Shown piece by piece: positions 25,049 through 51,922 of a DNA stretch of 64,000 bases. The notes under the pieces are model-generated. The model was not told the DNA's origin. It ran no database searches and saw nothing but the letters and a program-made list of their open reading frames with translations. Positions within the stretch are counted from its first letter, which is position 1. Every line of letters begins with the position of its first letter. This DNA comes from a virus. Location: IMG/VR virus record IMGVR_UViG_3300009181_000055, positions 16,862-80,861 of that record, one strand, 5' to 3'. The position numbers were made by a program, and so were the translations under genes.

Positions 25049-25897
25049 ATGAGTCAAGCAAAGACATTAAAAGAAATAATAAAAGAAGAGTACAAGAAAT
25101 GTTTAACAGATCCTGTTCACTTCATGAAAAAGTTTTGCCAAATTCAACATCCTCAAAAAGGAAAAATACCTTTTCATTTATATACATTTCAAGAGGAGAC
25201 CTTAAGAAACCTACGAGATCACGATTATAACGTCATACTAAAATCAAGGCAATTAGGTATATCAACTCTAAGTGCCGGCTATGCTCTTTGGCTTATGACG
25301 TTTTTTGGGGATAAAAATATTCTAGTTATCGCTACTAAACAAGAAGTAGCTAAAAATTTAGTATTAAAGGTAAAAGTCATGTATGAAAATTTACCTTCAT
25401 GGCTTAAATTGCCAGCAACAGAAGATAATAAATTATCATTACGTCTTAATAACGGTTCTCAAATTAAAGCAACTTCATCGTCAGGAGACTCTGGACGTTC
25501 AGAAGCATTGTCTTTATTAATAATAGATGAGGCTGCGTTTATTTCCAATGTAGAAGAAATTTGGATATCATCGCAACAGACTTTAGCAACGGGAGGAGGA
25601 GCAATTATATTATCCACTCCTAATGGCACCGGTAACTTTTTTCATCAAACATGGGTAGGAGCTGAGGAAGGTAGAAATAGGTTTAATACTATTCGTCTTC
25701 GCTGGGACGTTCATCCTGACAGAGATCAAATATGGAGAGATAAGCAAAATGAATTGTTAGGAGTTAAAGGAGCAGCTCAAGAATGTGATTGTTTATGGGG
25801 CGAATCAAAAGTAACGGTACGAGATAAGCTAACTAATGAAGAATTTAAAATAACATTAGAAGACTTATATAATTTAGATTATTTAGATAGCTATTAG
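25049..25897 (+). CDS. terL: Terminase large subunit, N-terminal half plus N-intein
   Basis: Residues 1-247 are the ATPase half of a T4 gp17-type terminase, the motor that pumps DNA into the prohead. They contain Walker A KSRQLGIST (K65-T73) and Walker B LLIIDEAAFI near residues 157-166. From Cys248 (25790) the sequence becomes a 35-residue N-intein, CLWGESKV...DLYNLDYLDSY, then a stop. The extein break follows AAQECD, just before the nuclease domain. The C-terminal half is the next gene, 14 bases downstream and in a different frame. Trans-splicing should join the halves. The short N-intein matches atypically split terminase inteins such as AceL-TerL. Confidence 0.9.
   Translation: MSQAKTLKEIIKEEYKKCLTDPVHFMKKFCQIQHPQKGKIPFHLYTFQEETLRNLRDHDYNVILKSRQLGISTLSAGYALWLMTFFGDKNILVIATKQEVAKNLVLKVKVMYENLPSWLKLPATEDNKLSLRLNNGSQIKATSSSGDSGRSEALSLLIIDEAAFISNVEEIWISSQQTLATGGGAIILSTPNGTGNFFHQTWVGAEEGRNRFNTIRLRWDVHPDRDQIWRDKQNELLGVKGAAQECDCLWGESKVTVRDKLTNEEFKITLEDLYNLDYLDSY
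25790..25894 (+). other. N-terminal fragment of a split intein in TerL
   Basis: Thirty-five residues starting with the nucleophilic Cys1 (CLWGESKV, block A) and ending in the ITLEDLYNL helix before the TAG stop. The B-block Thr/His motif is absent here and found in the C-terminal fragment, so the break lies unusually early in the intein fold. Confidence 0.88.
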
Positions 25898-25911
25898 AAT
25901 TAAACAATAAA

Positions 25912-26244
25912 ATGCAAATAAAACGCAATACAAGATTTGAAATATTGACGCCTAATGGGTATCAAGATTTTGCCGGCGTACGTAAGTTACGAAAAGATAA
26001 AATTTATGTAATTACATTATCATCAAATATTATATTAAGATGTTCTGAAACACATAAATTTATTGGTAATAGATTAGAATTAGAGGCTAACAAGCTTCAA
26101 ATAGGTAGTATTATAGATTCAATTGATAATAATATCGTGACCGTTATTGATATTAATATCGAAACTCAGCCTATAGAGTTATATGATATTATAGAAGTCG
26201 ATCGCGGAAATATTTTTATAGTAGATGGAATTGTATCACATAAC
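25912..26244 (+). other. C-terminal fragment of a split intein in TerL
   Basis: One hundred and eleven residues from the ATG to Asn (VDGIVSHN, blocks F/G), followed by Cys+1. It includes the B-block-like stretch with CSETHKF, normally found in the N-fragment of conventionally split inteins. Its opening, NTRFEILTPNGYQDFAGV, resembles the AceL-TerL C-intein as I remember it. Confidence 0.88.
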
Positions 26245-27090
26245 TGCGACTTTATCACTTCAGGTCATTCTGTAATTGAAGGTCAGGTATTAAAATGGTA
26301 TGAAACAACTCATATTAAAGATCCTATTGAAACTAGAAATAGTGGAGATTTATGGATATGGGAACCAGCAAATTACCAAAGAGATTATGTAGTTGTAGCT
26401 GACGTTGCTCGAGGTGACGGAGCTGACTACTCAGCATTTCATGTTATTGATGTAGAATCTGTAACGCAAGTAGCTGAATATAAAGGACAAATATCCACTA
26501 AAGAATATGGAAATATGTTAGTGAATATTGCAACAGAGTACAATGACGCTTTGCTAGTGATTGAAAATGCTAATGTGGGTTGGGCTTCAATTCAAGTAGC
26601 AATTGACAGAGGCTATAAAAATTTATACTATTCTTCTAAAGATAGTGGATTGTCAGATGTATCTCAACAATTAGCTAGATATGTTGATTTAAGAGACACT
26701 TCTGCAATGACAGCTGGGTTTACAACTTCATCTCGCACTCGCCCTTTAGTAATTTCCAAATTGGATACTTACATGAGAGAGCGAGTTCCTGTAATTCACT
26801 CTAGACGATTAATAGAAGAGTTGTATGTTTTTGTGTGGAATGGGTCAAAACCTGAAGCACAGCATGGTTATAACGACGATTTAGTAATGGCGTTTTCTAT
26901 TGGATTATGGATAAGAGACACTGCCTTAAAGCTTCGACAGCAAGGAATGGATCTAAATAGAAAAACTTTAGATTATTTTGGTAATGGACGAGGCGTTTAC
27001 AGTAATACTGCTGGAATGAGAAAAGAAACTGGATGGTCTATGGACACCGGTAAAAGAGGCGAAGACGAAGATTTAACGTGGCTTCTTTAA
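25912..27090 (+). CDS. terL: C-intein plus terminase large subunit, nuclease half
   Basis: It starts at its own ATG (MQIKRNTRFEILTPNGY) after an A-rich leader like other genes here. Residues 1-111 are the C-intein, with a B-block-like CSETHKF and the terminal VDGIVSHN; C112 is the +1 extein residue. The remaining 281 residues are the RNase H-like nuclease domain, with acidic metal ligands D164 (VVADVARGD), E218 (LLVIENAN) and D322/D323 (YNDDLVMAF). After trans-splicing the junction would read ECD-CDFITSG, giving a 528-residue terminase, in the usual range. No endonuclease domain lies within the intein. Confidence 0.9.
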   Translation: MQIKRNTRFEILTPNGYQDFAGVRKLRKDKIYVITLSSNIILRCSETHKFIGNRLELEANKLQIGSIIDSIDNNIVTVIDINIETQPIELYDIIEVDRGNIFIVDGIVSHNCDFITSGHSVIEGQVLKWYETTHIKDPIETRNSGDLWIWEPANYQRDYVVVADVARGDGADYSAFHVIDVESVTQVAEYKGQISTKEYGNMLVNIATEYNDALLVIENANVGWASIQVAIDRGYKNLYYSSKDSGLSDVSQQLARYVDLRDTSAMTAGFTTSSRTRPLVISKLDTYMRERVPVIHSRRLIEELYVFVWNGSKPEAQHGYNDDLVMAFSIGLWIRDTALKLRQQGMDLNRKTLDYFGNGRGVYSNTAGMRKETGWSMDTGKRGEDEDLTWLL

Positions 27091-27143: not shown

Positions 27144-29051
27144 ATGGCAGCAGATAAAACATTATACGGTCGATTAAAGCGTCTCTTTAATACCAATGTT
27201 ATCGTGCGTAAAGTGGGTAAGAATCAACTTAAAGTAGTTGATAATGATCATTTACAATCAATGGGTAACGCACATAACTCAAAATTTATTGATCGATTTA
27301 CTAGGTTGCATGGGGTTCGTCCTAATTCATTAAATACATATAATCCAAATTACAATTACTTTTCATCTAAGACTGAATTGTATACAGATTATGAAGTTAT
27401 GGATCAAGACGCAATTTTATCATCGGCATTAGATATCTATGCAGACGAAACAGTTATGAAAGATGACTTTGGTGATGTATTGCGCATTACCAGTGACAAT
27501 GAAAATATTAAAAAAATACTACATAATTTATTTTATGATGTTTTAAACATTGAATTTAATTTATGGCCATGGGTTCGTAATATGTGTAAATATGGAGATT
27601 TATTTTTGCATTTAGACATTCAAGAAGAAATTGGAATTGTAAATGTTACTCCGATGTCTGCATATGAAATTATCCGTGAAGAAGGAATGACATTAGACAA
27701 TCCATACCACGTGCAATTCAAGCAGTTAGGTGGAGGAAATATTATATATGAAAACTTTGAGATTGCTCATTTTCGTTTAATTAATGACTCAAACTTCTTA
27801 CCCTATGGTAAGTCTATGCTTGAAGGAGCTAGAAAAGTTTGGAAACAATTAACGTTAATGGAAGATGCGATGTTAATTCATCGTGTAATGAGAGCTCCTG
27901 AGAAACGTATATTTAAAGTAGACGTAGGAAATATTCCTCCTCAAGAAGTTGACGCTTACATGCAAAAAATTATTAATCAAATGAAAAAGGTACCTTATGT
28001 AGACCCTCAGACAGGAGATTATAATTTAAAGTTCAATATGCAAAATATGCTTGAAGATTATTTCTTACCAGTAAGGGGTGGGTCTTCAGGAACCGAAATT
28101 GATACTTTAGCAGGTATGGAATTTACAGGTATTGACGATATTGAATATCTTCGTAATAAAATGATGGCAGCTTTAAAAGTTCCCAAAGCATTTTTAGGAT
28201 ATGAAGAAGGAATTTCAGGAAAGGCTACACTAGCTGCTGAAGATGTTCGATTTGCTAGAACCATTGAAAGAATTCAAAGAATTGTAATTTCTGAATTACA
28301 TAAAATTGCTATTGTGCATTTATATGCTCAAGGATTTGCAAATGCAGAATTAGTTGATTTTGAATTGACAATGACTTCTCCGTCGACAATTTACGAACAA
28401 GAGAAATTAACTTTATACGCTACTAAAGTAACTTTAGCAGGCGATATGATTGAAAAGAAAATAATGTCTAAAGAATGGATATATAAAAATATATTTAATT
28501 TTACGTTGGATGAAGCGGCAGAAATACAATCAGGTTTAATCACCGATGGTAAAGATACTTTCCGTCTTACTAAAATTGGAGAAGAAGGTAAAGATCCAGC
28601 AGACCCTAAAAATCAAGAGCCAGAGGAAAAAGAAGGTGGTGAAGAATCAGCAAATCCGTTTGGTGGAGGAGGTGAAGAAGAAGAAGGTGGCGAAGAAAAA
28701 GGAGCAAATCCATTTGCCGGCGGCAAGGAAGAGAAAAAAGAACCTACTAAAGAAGAAGGCGTAGATAAATCTCTTCAGAAAAAATACGATACAAAAGCTA
28801 GACAAAAACAAACACCTGCAGGAGGTTGGCCAGGAGCCGGTCGCCCAAAAGAAGGTATGAAATATAATACTCACGAGCATCCTAGAGGATATGATCCCAT
28901 TGGAAAAGTAGCTTGGAAGAACTCTAGAAATGAATCAGCTATGGATACTATTAAAAAGTATGGATTAGCTAAGTATACTTCTAAGAAACCAAAGGTATTA
29001 AATGAGTCTGAAGGTAAATTGCTAGATGAAACAAATATTATCCCAGAATAA
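27144..29051 (+). CDS. 20: Portal protein (T4 gp20 type)
   Basis: The portal is the dodecameric ring through which DNA enters the head and the tail attaches. The 635-residue product matches the gp20 family through YTDYEVMDQDAILSSALDIY near residue 90, FNLWPWVRNMCKYGDLFLHL near 143, LIHRVMRAPEKRIF near 250, and the YLRNKMMAALKVPKAFLGYE stretch near 335. The first 500 residues approximate the T4 protein (524). The extra C-terminus holds acidic NPFGGGGEEEE-type repeats, a basic section and KYNTHEHPRGYDPIGK near residue 573, which I do not know from T4. It is preceded by a promoter-like motif. Confidence 0.9.
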   Translation: MAADKTLYGRLKRLFNTNVIVRKVGKNQLKVVDNDHLQSMGNAHNSKFIDRFTRLHGVRPNSLNTYNPNYNYFSSKTELYTDYEVMDQDAILSSALDIYADETVMKDDFGDVLRITSDNENIKKILHNLFYDVLNIEFNLWPWVRNMCKYGDLFLHLDIQEEIGIVNVTPMSAYEIIREEGMTLDNPYHVQFKQLGGGNIIYENFEIAHFRLINDSNFLPYGKSMLEGARKVWKQLTLMEDAMLIHRVMRAPEKRIFKVDVGNIPPQEVDAYMQKIINQMKKVPYVDPQTGDYNLKFNMQNMLEDYFLPVRGGSSGTEIDTLAGMEFTGIDDIEYLRNKMMAALKVPKAFLGYEEGISGKATLAAEDVRFARTIERIQRIVISELHKIAIVHLYAQGFANAELVDFELTMTSPSTIYEQEKLTLYATKVTLAGDMIEKKIMSKEWIYKNIFNFTLDEAAEIQSGLITDGKDTFRLTKIGEEGKDPADPKNQEPEEKEGGEESANPFGGGGEEEEGGEEKGANPFAGGKEEKKEPTKEEGVDKSLQKKYDTKARQKQTPAGGWPGAGRPKEGMKYNTHEHPRGYDPIGKVAWKNSRNESAMDTIKKYGLAKYTSKKPKVLNESEGKLLDETNIIPE

Positions 29052-48911: not shown

Positions 48912-50354
48912 TTAAGGAGTATATAAAAATTTATAATTACCACAGTCCCAATACCGATCATATCCATTAATCAACATATTTTCATACTCAGTTATTGTAT
49001 TATCAAATATTGCAATTTTACTTTGTAATTTATGTTTTTGAAATAGCTCCCGTGAGTATACATTAGCTCCTTTAAAGTAAAAATAATTAGATGAAGTAAC
49101 GCCTATTAATTTAAAATTACTTTTAAAATAGGCATTTCCATTGCTTATTGCCCTATCGCAATAAGTAAATATATTTTTTGGATTATACGTTTTAATAAAA
49201 TACGATAGTAATTTAGAAAAGCCACCAACTATGGTGCAATTCAATTCTGAAGCAAATCTTATAAGCTCCCACTCATATTGTTTAGTATAACGAGCTCTTC
49301 CTAAAGTACATACAGCAACTAAATTGTCATTGTAATACAATCCTAAATTCACTCTGGAATTACACGAACCCTGTAAATGAGTTTTATTTAAAAAATCATT
49401 TTTAACTTTTGATTTAATTTCTTTAACGACACATTTTCTTGCCGGGATAGTAGTATTACACTTAAGCTTGGTAGATATAATTGATTTAACAATGTCTTGC
49501 TTTTGATGCCATTGATAGTCAAATATATGTATCAATGAATAACCTGCGGATATAGACTGTTTAGTCTTGTTTAAATGATATTTTTTGCTATTTAATTTAC
49601 TTTCTGAATGCCAATACAATCCATTATACTCAATAGCTATATTATATTCAGGTAGCACAATATCTAATTCTTTTCCTGATAATATTGTACGATCATTTTC
49701 AATAATTACGCAGTTAGGGGCTAGAGATCGTATATACTCTATTAATTCTTTTTCTCCTTTTGATTGAGTTACTGCTTGAGTAGGAATACATACTCGGCAT
49801 ATTGGAATAATGCCATTGTCAATTGATGAATGAAAAACATTAAAGCATTCATTGCACTGAAATGAATATTGAGTATTATCAACTCCATTATACTCTAATT
49901 CAGTAAACATAGGAACGACATGTTTCCATTTTATTAATATGTCATTGTATTTAGTTATCATTCGTTTCACCGGACCGTTGTAAGTAGCACTTCCATATTT
50001 TTTCAATTTAGTTGCATGTACTTTATCTAAATTATTGAAATTTTCATTTCCATATTTTTTCAATTTAGTTTGTTTAGATTTAGATAAAATGTCATTGCTA
50101 CACAATGCATGCTCAACTCCATATTTCAAAGTCATTGTTAATTTATGTTTCTTCTGAATGTCTTTGTGAGTCATAGGATGTCCTTTTGCATCCCATATTA
50201 GTTGTAAAGCATCGCGTTGTTTTTGTTTAACTTTGGGGTCTGCATTTGCACATTTTTTACTGCAATATTGTTTATTCCATGATGGTAAATGCTCAAAATG
50301 CACATCACACATTTTGCATTTTTTCAATTGTCTTTGTTGTTTAGGTCTAGGCAT
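48912..50354 (-). CDS. Free-standing homing endonuclease, Vsr/PDDEXK-like
   Basis: The only minus-strand gene, inserted between sheath and tube. The 480-residue protein has an N-terminal zinc finger (CKMCDVHFEHL, YCSKKC) and repeated KLKKYG DNA-binding motifs (residues 80-115). A second Cys pair group follows (FQCNECF, CRVC), then a nuclease core at about 225-285: GKELDIVLPEYNIAIEYNGL, YWHSE and SLIHIFDYQW. This fits the EDxHD/Vsr-like family of phage and metagenome homing endonucleases, often found beside split inteins. The C-terminal 190 residues are unassigned. It has its own promoter-like motif on the minus strand. Confidence 0.75.
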   Translation of the reverse strand: MPRPKQQRQLKKCKMCDVHFEHLPSWNKQYCSKKCANADPKVKQKQRDALQLIWDAKGHPMTHKDIQKKHKLTMTLKYGVEHALCSNDILSKSKQTKLKKYGNENFNNLDKVHATKLKKYGSATYNGPVKRMITKYNDILIKWKHVVPMFTELEYNGVDNTQYSFQCNECFNVFHSSIDNGIIPICRVCIPTQAVTQSKGEKELIEYIRSLAPNCVIIENDRTILSGKELDIVLPEYNIAIEYNGLYWHSESKLNSKKYHLNKTKQSISAGYSLIHIFDYQWHQKQDIVKSIISTKLKCNTTIPARKCVVKEIKSKVKNDFLNKTHLQGSCNSRVNLGLYYNDNLVAVCTLGRARYTKQYEWELIRFASELNCTIVGGFSKLLSYFIKTYNPKNIFTYCDRAISNGNAYFKSNFKLIGVTSSNYFYFKGANVYSRELFQKHKLQSKIAIFDNTITEYENMLINGYDRYWDCGNYKFLYTP

Positions 50355-51061: not shown

Positions 51062-51922
51062 ATGACAAAATTTAATTGTAATCAATGTAATAAAGACTTT
51101 AATAGTCTTAAAAGTCTTCAAACTCATAATTCTAGAATACATAAAATATCTGGAGCTCAAACCTATGTAAATTTTAATTTAAACGGAGAGTGGCCTTTAT
51201 GTAAATGTGGCTGTATGGAAAAACTAAATTTTCAAGGAGGTAGATTTGGAGATTATATTAGAGGACATGCAGCAAGAATAAATGGAGGATTTTATTCCGA
51301 AAAAGGACTAGAAAAATCAGCAGAAACTCGCAGAGACCAATTTGCTTCTGGAGAACGAATTCAATGGAATAAAGGAGTATCTAAAACGGATGTGCAAATG
51401 AAAGCTTGTGTAGAAGCAGCACAAAATTCAGAACGCAGAAAGAAAATATCAGACGGATTAAAAGGCAAAAAGAAATCGCCAGAGCATATTGCAAAGATTA
51501 AGACTGATAGACAAAAATATTGGAGTAATCAAGAAAATCGAGATGCTCAGAGAGTTCGAAGGTCTAAGTATATGAGCACTCATTTAATTAAAAATGAAAC
51601 TAAGTTAGAAAAAGAATTTCAAGCTATTCTAAATGGCTTAGGAGTTTCGTATATATTTCAGTATACAGTTAATGGATATAATTATGATTTCTATATTCCA
51701 GATAAAAACATATTAATAGAAGTTGACGGAGATTGGTGGCACTGCAATCCAACATTAAATATACAACCCGTATATGAATCACAAAAGCATACTATTGAGC
51801 ATGATCTAACTAAAAATAAAATTGCATTAGATAATGGATATCAGCTTTTACGCTTTTGGGAACATGACATTAAAACTAATCGATTTGACGTAGTTAAAAA
51901 TTTAATGGAAATTATTAAATAA
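51062..51922 (+). CDS. Free-standing homing endonuclease with C2H2 finger and NUMOD3
   Basis: This 286-residue protein starts with a classic C2H2 zinc finger (C6, C9, H22, H27). A second Cys group (CKCGCMEKL) follows, then a NUMOD3-type DNA-binding motif at about 127-148 (KKISDGLKGKKKSPEHIAKI). A Vsr-like nuclease core lies at about 190-275, with KNILIEVDGDWWHCNP and QLLRFWEHDIKTN. The modular DNA-binding plus nuclease layout is typical of phage homing endonucleases. It sits directly after the tube gene and begins right behind a strong hairpin. Its target site is unknown; the tube gene or the terminase intein site are candidates. Confidence 0.8.
   Translation: MTKFNCNQCNKDFNSLKSLQTHNSRIHKISGAQTYVNFNLNGEWPLCKCGCMEKLNFQGGRFGDYIRGHAARINGGFYSEKGLEKSAETRRDQFASGERIQWNKGVSKTDVQMKACVEAAQNSERRKKISDGLKGKKKSPEHIAKIKTDRQKYWSNQENRDAQRVRRSKYMSTHLIKNETKLEKEFQAILNGLGVSYIFQYTVNGYNYDFYIPDKNILIEVDGDWWHCNPTLNIQPVYESQKHTIEHDLTKNKIALDNGYQLLRFWEHDIKTNRFDVVKNLMEIIK

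What the first reader, a model, noticed from the sequence alone, without database searches (positions are those of the whole stretch)
25049..27090. Naturally split terminase intein with an unusually early split
TerL is two genes in different frames, 14 bases apart. The first ends in a 35-residue N-intein beginning with Cys1. The second begins with a 111-residue C-intein ending SHN before Cys+1. The B-block lies in the C-fragment, so the break is near the N-end, as in atypically split terminase inteins (AceL-TerL type) and unlike gp41- or DnaE-type splits. Extein halves carry all ATPase (K65-T73, Walker B) and nuclease residues, so splicing would restore a 528-residue enzyme. Splitting leaves packaging dependent on trans-splicing.
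Basis: partly seen in the sequence, partly recalled or inferred. Interest (0 to 1): 0.9.

Follow-up and report, generated by a model that had tools for sequence, protein, structure and literature searches.

The report
Split packaging-motor gene rejoined by intein
A virus of bacteria carries its DNA-packaging motor gene in two separate pieces whose proteins are very probably stitched together by a self-removing protein splicer, and relatives suggest how the split arose: a likely gene-cutting parasite once sat in the gap and was recently lost.

Summary
Observation confirmed. TerL is encoded by two ORFs in different frames, 14 nt apart: TerL-N plus a 35-aa N-intein, and a 111-aa C-intein plus TerL-C. 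Cys1, block-B His, His-Asn and Cys+1 are present. The C-intein matches the atypically split TerL intein Cat (phmmer E 1.7e-11; best Foldseek hit of its model). Intein-free relatives read through QECD|CDF, so splicing would give 528 aa. The kind is known (AceL-TerL, GOS-TerL, Cat); the early split is normal for it.

Added: in 33 of 43 distinct related TerL loci with both halves, a putative homing endonuclease (HEN) gene lies in the break. The window lost it and keeps its last 19 nt, which hold the N-half's stop codon. L003 (C-intein 97.9% nt, dS 0.045; neighbouring genes dS about 1.1) still has it, so the intein moved recently and the HEN went later. Eight loci, window included, are HEN-less or remnant splits; L174 is contiguous. 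In 18 of 29 HEN-bearing loci with this insertion site, a 15-nt copy of the site precedes the HEN gene, like an I-TevI operator. Splicing, HEN activity and repression were not tested.

The parts
25049..25789 (+). TerL N-extein (247 aa, ATPase half, ends QECD)
   Evidence: Pfam Terminase_6N; PHROG terminase large subunit E 2.5e-43; alignment with intein-free TerL continuing at the same residue
25790..25894 (+). N-intein, 35 aa, Cys1 (block A CLWGESKV)
   Evidence: translation; N-inteins 44-97% identical in related split loci; no useful PDB hit on its own
25892..25910 (+). Scar of the deleted HEN gene: the 19 nt that end the HEN ORF in L003; includes the N-half's TAG stop (25895-25897)
   Evidence: direct sequence comparison with L003 and L004
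25898..25911 (+). 14-nt spacer between the two ORFs
25912..26244 (+). C-intein, 111 aa, block B CSETH, ends SHN
   Evidence: CatC 6dsl_B phmmer E 1.7e-11; AF2 pLDDT 81, best Foldseek hit 6dsl_B E 1.4e-6; intein_Cterm over cut-off
26245..27087 (+). TerL C-extein (281 aa, nuclease half, starts CDF with Cys+1); stop codon 27088-27090
   Evidence: PHROG terminase hits; aligned with intein-free TerL

Best explanation
The locus is a naturally split, mobile terminase intein that has lost its homing endonuclease. Two polypeptides are made, TerL(1-247)-IntN(35) and IntC(111)-TerL(248-528). Inferred steps: IntN docks into IntC to complete a HINT fold; Cys1 makes an N-S shift; transthioesterification to Cys+1 follows; Asn111 cyclises with help from His110; and TerL is ligated at ECD|CDF. 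The split point is the place where a putative HEN gene (EDxHD/Vsr-like by weak matches) lies in most relatives sampled. The element spread horizontally, presumably by homing into intein-free terL alleles. In this lineage the HEN was deleted recently, leaving the last 19 nt of its gene and two separate frames. TerL therefore stays in two pieces and packaging relies on trans-splicing. Shown: anatomy, conserved residues, homology, HINT-like models of parts and of a sibling, junction, recent transfer of the intein, HEN scar. Inferred: splicing itself, HEN activity, dependence of packaging on splicing.
For: Anatomy and identical second contig. CatC match. AF2 model of the window's C-intein: pLDDT 81, pTM 0.65, best fold hit Cat. 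Model of the contiguous sibling intein L174 with extein flanks (mean pLDDT 71.6, pTM 0.61, intein part better) matches gp41-1 (TM 0.82 by target length, E 4.5e-8), VidaL and Cat. 79 of the 80 nearest TerL-N loci listed are intein-free with TerL-C starting at once. Window vs L003: C-intein nt 97.9%, dS 0.045; C-extein dS 1.08; portal dS 1.16. Window vs L004: N-intein dS 0.05, C-intein dS 0.13, exteins dS 0.99 and 1.33. 43 distinct main-family loci with both halves: 33 with HEN, 8 bare or remnant, 1 with a truncated HEN, 1 contiguous; SHN ends the intein in 40 of 43 and +1 is Cys in 43 of 43. Presence/absence needs at least 19 changes on the TerL-N tree. No second terL in 10 of 10 records, five of them annotated phage records whose TerL is likewise split by a related C-intein.
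Against: No splicing assay. Pfam Intein_splicing and PT-HINT are below cut-off. The model of the window's own C-fragment is loose against complete inteins (TM about 0.5, rmsd about 5 A or more), and the window's N+C pair was not folded together. The N-intein alone finds nothing in PDB. Purifying selection on the C-intein is only weakly resolved (dN/dS 0.34-0.37 on few changes). The HEN's class rests on sub-threshold matches. On the tree the 8 bare rows are no more and no less scattered than shuffled labels (8 changes, shuffled mean 7.8). The sample is what three capped queries reached.
Confidence: 0.87

Rival explanations
1. The two ORFs are really one gene broken by a sequencing or assembly frame error; the intein is contiguous, as in L174.
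For: A contiguous sibling exists (L174, one 673-aa ORF).
Against: Identical sequence in a second contig (sample independence not known). L004 is split with a different gap and no overlap of the frames. 33 of 43 relatives have an HEN-type frame in the break. The N-half's stop is inside HEN-derived sequence.
Confidence: 0.04
2. The two TerL halves work as a two-subunit motor without ligation, the intein parts being inert.
For: TerL ATPase and nuclease domains are separable in principle (recalled knowledge); splicing was not shown.
Against: All splicing residues are kept in the window and SHN (40 of 43) and Cys+1 (43 of 43) are kept in the family. Intein pieces are retained at exact junctions with no second terL found.
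Confidence: 0.06
3. A frameshift or RNA splicing joins the two frames before or during translation, giving a cis-spliced precursor.
For: The frames share a few bases (C frame open from 25891, N stop codon at 25895-25897).
Against: No slippery heptamer is seen by eye in that short overlap. In L004 the C frame opens only 16 nt after the N stop codon, and in most relatives another ORF intervenes. RNA introns were not searched for.
Confidence: 0.02
4. The split terL is a decaying, non-functional allele of a defective virus.
For: HEN deletion is a step of degeneration; L024 has a TGA inside its C-intein.
Against: Window exteins are intact with dN/dS 0.07-0.12 against L003 and L004. The only terL found in a 181.6-kb record of the same sequence is this one.
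Confidence: 0.03

Closest known systems
AceL-TerL / GOS-TerL / Cat (atypically split TerL inteins)
   Same: Same host gene and very early split: IntN 35 aa here against 25 (AceL), 37 (GOS) and 30 (Cat); IntC 111 against 104 (Cat) (PMC11766414, passages). CatC (6dsl_B) is the best sequence and fold hit.
   Different: A natural sequence from a T4-type virus whose nearest annotated TerL is that of Flavobacterium phage immuto (55% in the C-half). The HEN scar and the HEN-bearing siblings suggest why the split lies here. The exact insertion codon of AceL/GOS was not compared.
Fractured genes: split inteins with an HEN gene between the halves (Dassa et al. 2009; paper not held, known from citations and recall)
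   Same: 33 of 43 related TerL loci have N-intein, putative HEN and C-intein in that order, in separate frames except L026, where the HEN is fused to the N-intein.
   Different: The window itself lacks the HEN. The split is between blocks A and B, not at the usual site that gives about 100+40 aa (PMC11923092, passages).
Split TerL inteins in annotated phage records (VP-1, 1.244.A, K469, PSTRCR_127, EniLVp02)
   Same: Related C-intein (25-36% identity) before TerL-C, early break, separate ORFs.
   Different: The HEN is GIY-YIG or SegE-like by Pfam in VP-1, 1.244.A and PSTRCR_127 (K469 only by similarity to VP-1), fused in frame to the N-intein (VP-1, 1.244.A, K469) or separate (PSTRCR_127). EniLVp02 has none there and its two ORFs overlap by 32 nt.
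I-TevI autorepressor operator (T4 td intron)
   Same: A copy of the endonuclease's own homing site lies just before its gene (I-TevI: 15/20 nt identity; PMC2988022, passages).
   Different: Here in a split-intein element with another putative nuclease class; cleavage, binding and repression untested; not in the window.

Membership tests
Atypically split TerL intein (AceL/GOS/Cat type) | Intein halves encoded by two separate ORFs of a terminase large-subunit gene | tested here: met
Atypically split TerL intein (AceL/GOS/Cat type) | Very short IntN (about 25-37 aa), block B in IntC | tested here: met
   IntN 35 aa, CSETH in IntC; reference sizes (another paper gives 15-25 aa for atypical IntN in general)
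Atypically split TerL intein (AceL/GOS/Cat type) | Sequence kinship with Cat | tested here: met
   IntC: 6dsl_B E 1.7e-11, family profile E 2.3e-21. IntN alone: no hit
Atypically split TerL intein (AceL/GOS/Cat type) | Catalytic residues Cys1, block-B His, penultimate His, terminal Asn, Cys+1 | tested here: met
   H48 and N111 invariant, H110 nearly so, in 20 C-inteins
Atypically split TerL intein (AceL/GOS/Cat type) | HINT fold on assembly | tested here: inconclusive
   C-fragment model and contiguous sibling L174 model match HINT inteins; the window's own pair was not folded together
Atypically split TerL intein (AceL/GOS/Cat type) | Trans-splicing activity | not testable with these tools
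   needs co-expression or proteomics
Atypically split TerL intein (AceL/GOS/Cat type) | Same insertion codon as AceL/GOS | not tested
   AceL/GOS extein sequences were not in hand
Fractured gene (split intein with HEN gene between) | HEN gene between the halves | tested here: not met
   absent from the window gap; no relative of it in the 80.9-kb record with the L003 HEN or in the 181.6-kb record with the L016 HEN; met in 33 of 43 relatives
EDxHD/Vsr-like HEN (relatives only) | Recognised nuclease domain | tested here: inconclusive
   matches to nuclease families below cut-off or absent; hhalign with the window's DUF559/Vsr-type protein prob 51.6%, E 1.5e-4
I-TevI-type autorepressor operator (relatives only) | Copy of the insertion site upstream of the HEN start | tested here: met
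   18 of 29 HEN-bearing ECD|C loci within 3 of 15 mismatches, 11 of 29 not; 0 of 4 of the other insertion type
I-TevI-type autorepressor operator (relatives only) | Overlaps the HEN promoter; bound by the HEN | not testable with these tools
   AT-rich stretch before the copy, promoter not established

The most novel reading that the evidence does not exclude
The early split in TerL inteins is held by a full homing cycle: empty site, split intein with a HEN gene in the break, HEN deletion leaving a stable trans-splicing pair (window), occasionally refusion to a contiguous intein (L174). The HEN controls itself through a 15-nt mimic of its own insertion site placed just before its gene, an I-TevI-like autorepressor operator in a split-intein element.
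Probability: 0.4. Interest if true: 0.65.

Novelty: new member of a known kind. Interest (0 to 1): 0.5.

Why it matters
Atypically split TerL inteins are protein-labelling tools (PMC11766414, passages); I know of no settled reason why nature splits them so early. Here the break coincides with a HEN insertion point, several lineages caught at different stages are in hand, and related HEN-bearing, HEN-deleted and contiguous inteins give ready test pairs. They let one ask whether a phage's packaging motor can be run by trans-splicing alone, and whether HENs of split inteins repress themselves.

Tried and rejected
Frame error: rejected (second contig, L004, scar). Programmed frameshift: rejected (no slippery site seen by eye; frames do not overlap in L004). 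HEN elsewhere in the genome: no relative found with the L003 HEN in the own record or with the L016 HEN in the 181.6-kb record; two other, unlike HENs are in the window. N-intein alone against PDB: nothing useful. Naming the HEN from Pfam, PHROGs or PDB: nothing convincing. Generality of the site copy in 34 HEN loci outside TerL, by an undirected search for any shared 15-mer: no clear signal (4 of 34 beat all of their 15 shuffles); a weak test that would have seen only the best TerL cases. Alignments A4 and A5 misplaced fragments and were not used for folding; A6, which was, misplaces about 8 residues of the C-inteins. Rows dropped before the 43: 9 of 66 loci lacked the N side and 14 had another TerL family or a partial N side. 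The 33 HEN-bearing loci were sorted by a gap over 600 nt (L026 by hand); all 33 also have a HEN hit. Among the 43 are near-copies (such as L206, L209, L215; L192, L198; L014, L015). In one search, partial, divergent or stop-holding N-halves were left out first; 157 loci gave 116 distinct sequences and 3 of unclear state were dropped. L026 was left out.

Full report
OBSERVATION. The first ends TerL at QECD (residue 247) and goes on as CLWGESKVTVRDKLTNEEFKITLEDLYNLDYLDSY, a 35-aa N-intein. The second is a 111-aa C-intein ending SHN, then CDFITSGHSV and the rest of TerL (281 aa). Terminase_6N matches the N-half (E 2.1e-12), PHROG terminase families match both halves, and a T4-type portal follows at 27144 (Portal_T4 E 7.8e-75). 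The C-intein matches intein_Cterm above its cut-off; Pfam intein models match below theirs. A 181,588-nt IMG/VR contig holds the same 6,336 nt with no difference; whether it is an independent sample is not known.

WHAT IT IS. phmmer against PDB gives CatC, the engineered consensus atypically split intein, at E 1.7e-11, then gp41-1 at 0.0084. The AlphaFold model of the C-intein alone (pLDDT 81, pTM 0.65) has 6dsl_B (Cat) as best Foldseek hit (E 1.4e-6); other inteins, VidaL among them, follow. The fit is loose (rmsd about 5 A), as may be expected of a part of a fold. The contiguous relative L174 was folded with 40-residue extein flanks (mean pLDDT 71.6, pTM 0.61; over the intein, blocks of ten mostly 76-95, 62 around the join of the two halves, about 50 at its last residues). 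It matches gp41-1 (TM 0.82 by target length), VidaL (0.73) and Cat (0.76). Published sizes: IntN 25 (AceL), 37 (GOS), 30 (Cat) aa; IntC 104 aa in Cat (PMC11766414, passages). So this is a new member of the atypically split TerL inteins.

THE EMPTY SITE. In the 80 nearest IMG/VR TerL-N loci that one search kept, 79 pass directly from the N-extein to TerL-C and one (L159, the same contig as L028) carries the element. The three closest (92, 91, 85% in TerL-N) are empty. Flavobacterium phage immuto (61%) and Microcystis phage Mel-JY01 (62%) are empty too. Splicing would thus restore the family's normal sequence.

THE GAP IS A HEN SCAR. In L003 (C-intein 96% aa, 97.9% nt) an ORF of at least 144 aa, cut by the contig edge, ends with one base between its stop and the C-half's ATG. 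Its last 19 nt are window 25892-25910, and the N-half's stop codon lies inside them. L004 keeps about the first 30 codons of the HEN gene, fused in frame to the C-intein through the HEN's 3' end. Searching with the L003 HEN found many loci with N-intein, HEN and C-intein in that order. The HEN has four invariant Cys (CxC and CxxC) and conserved acidic and His residues (D193, E204, E207, H210) in 15 aligned members. Pfam matches that could name it (MTES_1575, DUF559, NUMOD3) are all below cut-off. A profile comparison with the window's own DUF559/Vsr-type protein at 51062-51922 gives E 1.5e-4 but a probability of only 51.6%. I call it a putative EDxHD/Vsr-like HEN.

MOBILITY. Window vs L003: C-intein dS 0.045, C-extein dS 1.08, portal dS 1.16. 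Window vs L004: N-intein dS 0.05, C-intein dS 0.13, exteins dS 0.99 and 1.33. Against L003, identity falls at the intein's end from 20-codon bins of 0.90-1.00 to 0.72 and 0.67, then stays at 0.67-0.88. The intein is far younger in these genomes than the genes around it, and because L003 still has the HEN, the window's HEN loss is most simply later still. L203 vs HEN-bearing L014 repeats this: N-intein identical, C-intein dS 0.015, TerL-N dS 0.58; its deletion ends lie in a short repeat. On the TerL-N tree (113 rows: 75 empty, 28 split with HEN, 8 bare or remnant, 1 HEN-truncated, 1 contiguous; quick method, SH-aLRT support only), presence/absence needs at least 19 changes (9 forced by starred branches; shuffled mean 32). 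The 8 bare rows need 8 changes (6 forced), which is what shuffled labels give too, so they look scattered but show no pattern beyond that. Long branches and biased sampling limit all this.

CENSUS. Of 66 distinct C-intein loci, 43 have both halves in the main TerL family: 33 with HEN, 8 bare or remnant (window, L004, L176, L189, L193, L203, L225, L226), 1 HEN-truncated (L036), 1 contiguous (L174). Some of the 43 are near-copies. By eye, remnants of HEN ends are readable in L004, L176, L225, L226 and perhaps L193; none was seen in L189.

OTHER PHAGES. VP-1, 1.244.A, K469, PSTRCR_127 and EniLVp02 have related C-inteins before TerL-C and the same early break. In VP-1 and 1.244.A the N-intein runs on in frame into a GIY-YIG domain (over cut-off); EniLVp02 has no HEN between the halves. 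None of ten records searched, these five included, shows a second terL with a TerL query or with PF03237; a quite different terL would be missed. As such phages need TerL (established knowledge), these are natural evidence that the splits work, though no product was seen.

THE SITE COPY. Between the N-intein stop and the HEN start, many loci hold CAAGARTGTGANTGT, the DNA of their own insertion site QECD|C. First test: 20 of 42 loci within 3 mismatches of their own site, against 0.9% of random 78-nt windows of the same loci. Second test with a wider region: 18 of 29 HEN-bearing loci inserted at ECD|C (11 of 29 not), 0 of 4 of those inserted one codon earlier, 2 of 8 HEN-less ones (both with HEN remnants); in 15 of the 18, at most 0.5% of the other TerL 15-mers of the locus fit as well. 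In an alignment of 17 leaders, picked for the copy (L014 has it only with 5 mismatches), it is the conserved block, preceded by an AT-rich stretch. The loci are related, some closely, and the copy was noticed by eye before testing. T4 I-TevI binds an operator upstream of its gene that resembles its homing site (PMC2988022, passages), so autorepression is my likeliest reading; a relic of how the HEN entered is the rival. An undirected search in 34 HEN loci outside TerL gave no clear signal.

NOVELTY. Kind known; new member. In the listings and passages that I saw no held paper describes the HEN-lost state, the contiguous sibling or the site copy for TerL split inteins. The main 2009 paper is not held and no paper was read whole, so this is not a claim of priority.

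Noticed in passing
window 51062-51922 (+): C2H2 zinc-finger plus DUF559/Vsr-type putative homing endonuclease just downstream of the tail tube gene.
   Followed up: partly
window 48912-50354 (-): 480-aa putative homing endonuclease (PHROG 3339, E 7.4e-118) on the opposite strand between tail sheath and tail tube genes, so the tail tube gene is flanked by two HENs.
   Followed up: no
L016, L021, L027, L028, L032, L035, L209 and others, leader of the HEN gene: 15-nt copy of the TerL insertion site just before the HEN start, like the I-TevI operator.
   Followed up: yes
L174:2167-4188: Contiguous (cis) version of the same TerL intein in a single 673-aa ORF, a natural fused partner for comparing splicing.
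   Followed up: yes
L236:2146-2253: N-intein tail reads ...DLYDGMQECDYL: a QECD-like copy seems to overlap the N-intein's own end; it scored 4 mismatches.
   Followed up: no
L024:2239-2241: In-frame TGA inside the C-intein of an HEN-bearing split terL: error, decay or recoding.
   Followed up: no
L189 (303,564-nt record): A 304-kb virus record with a bare split terL as the only terL found and one distant HEN relative far away.
   Followed up: partly
L168 vs L215: Empty and HEN-bearing terL in near relatives (TerL-N 98.4% aa, dS 0.5), a possible donor/recipient pair for a homing test.
   Followed up: partly
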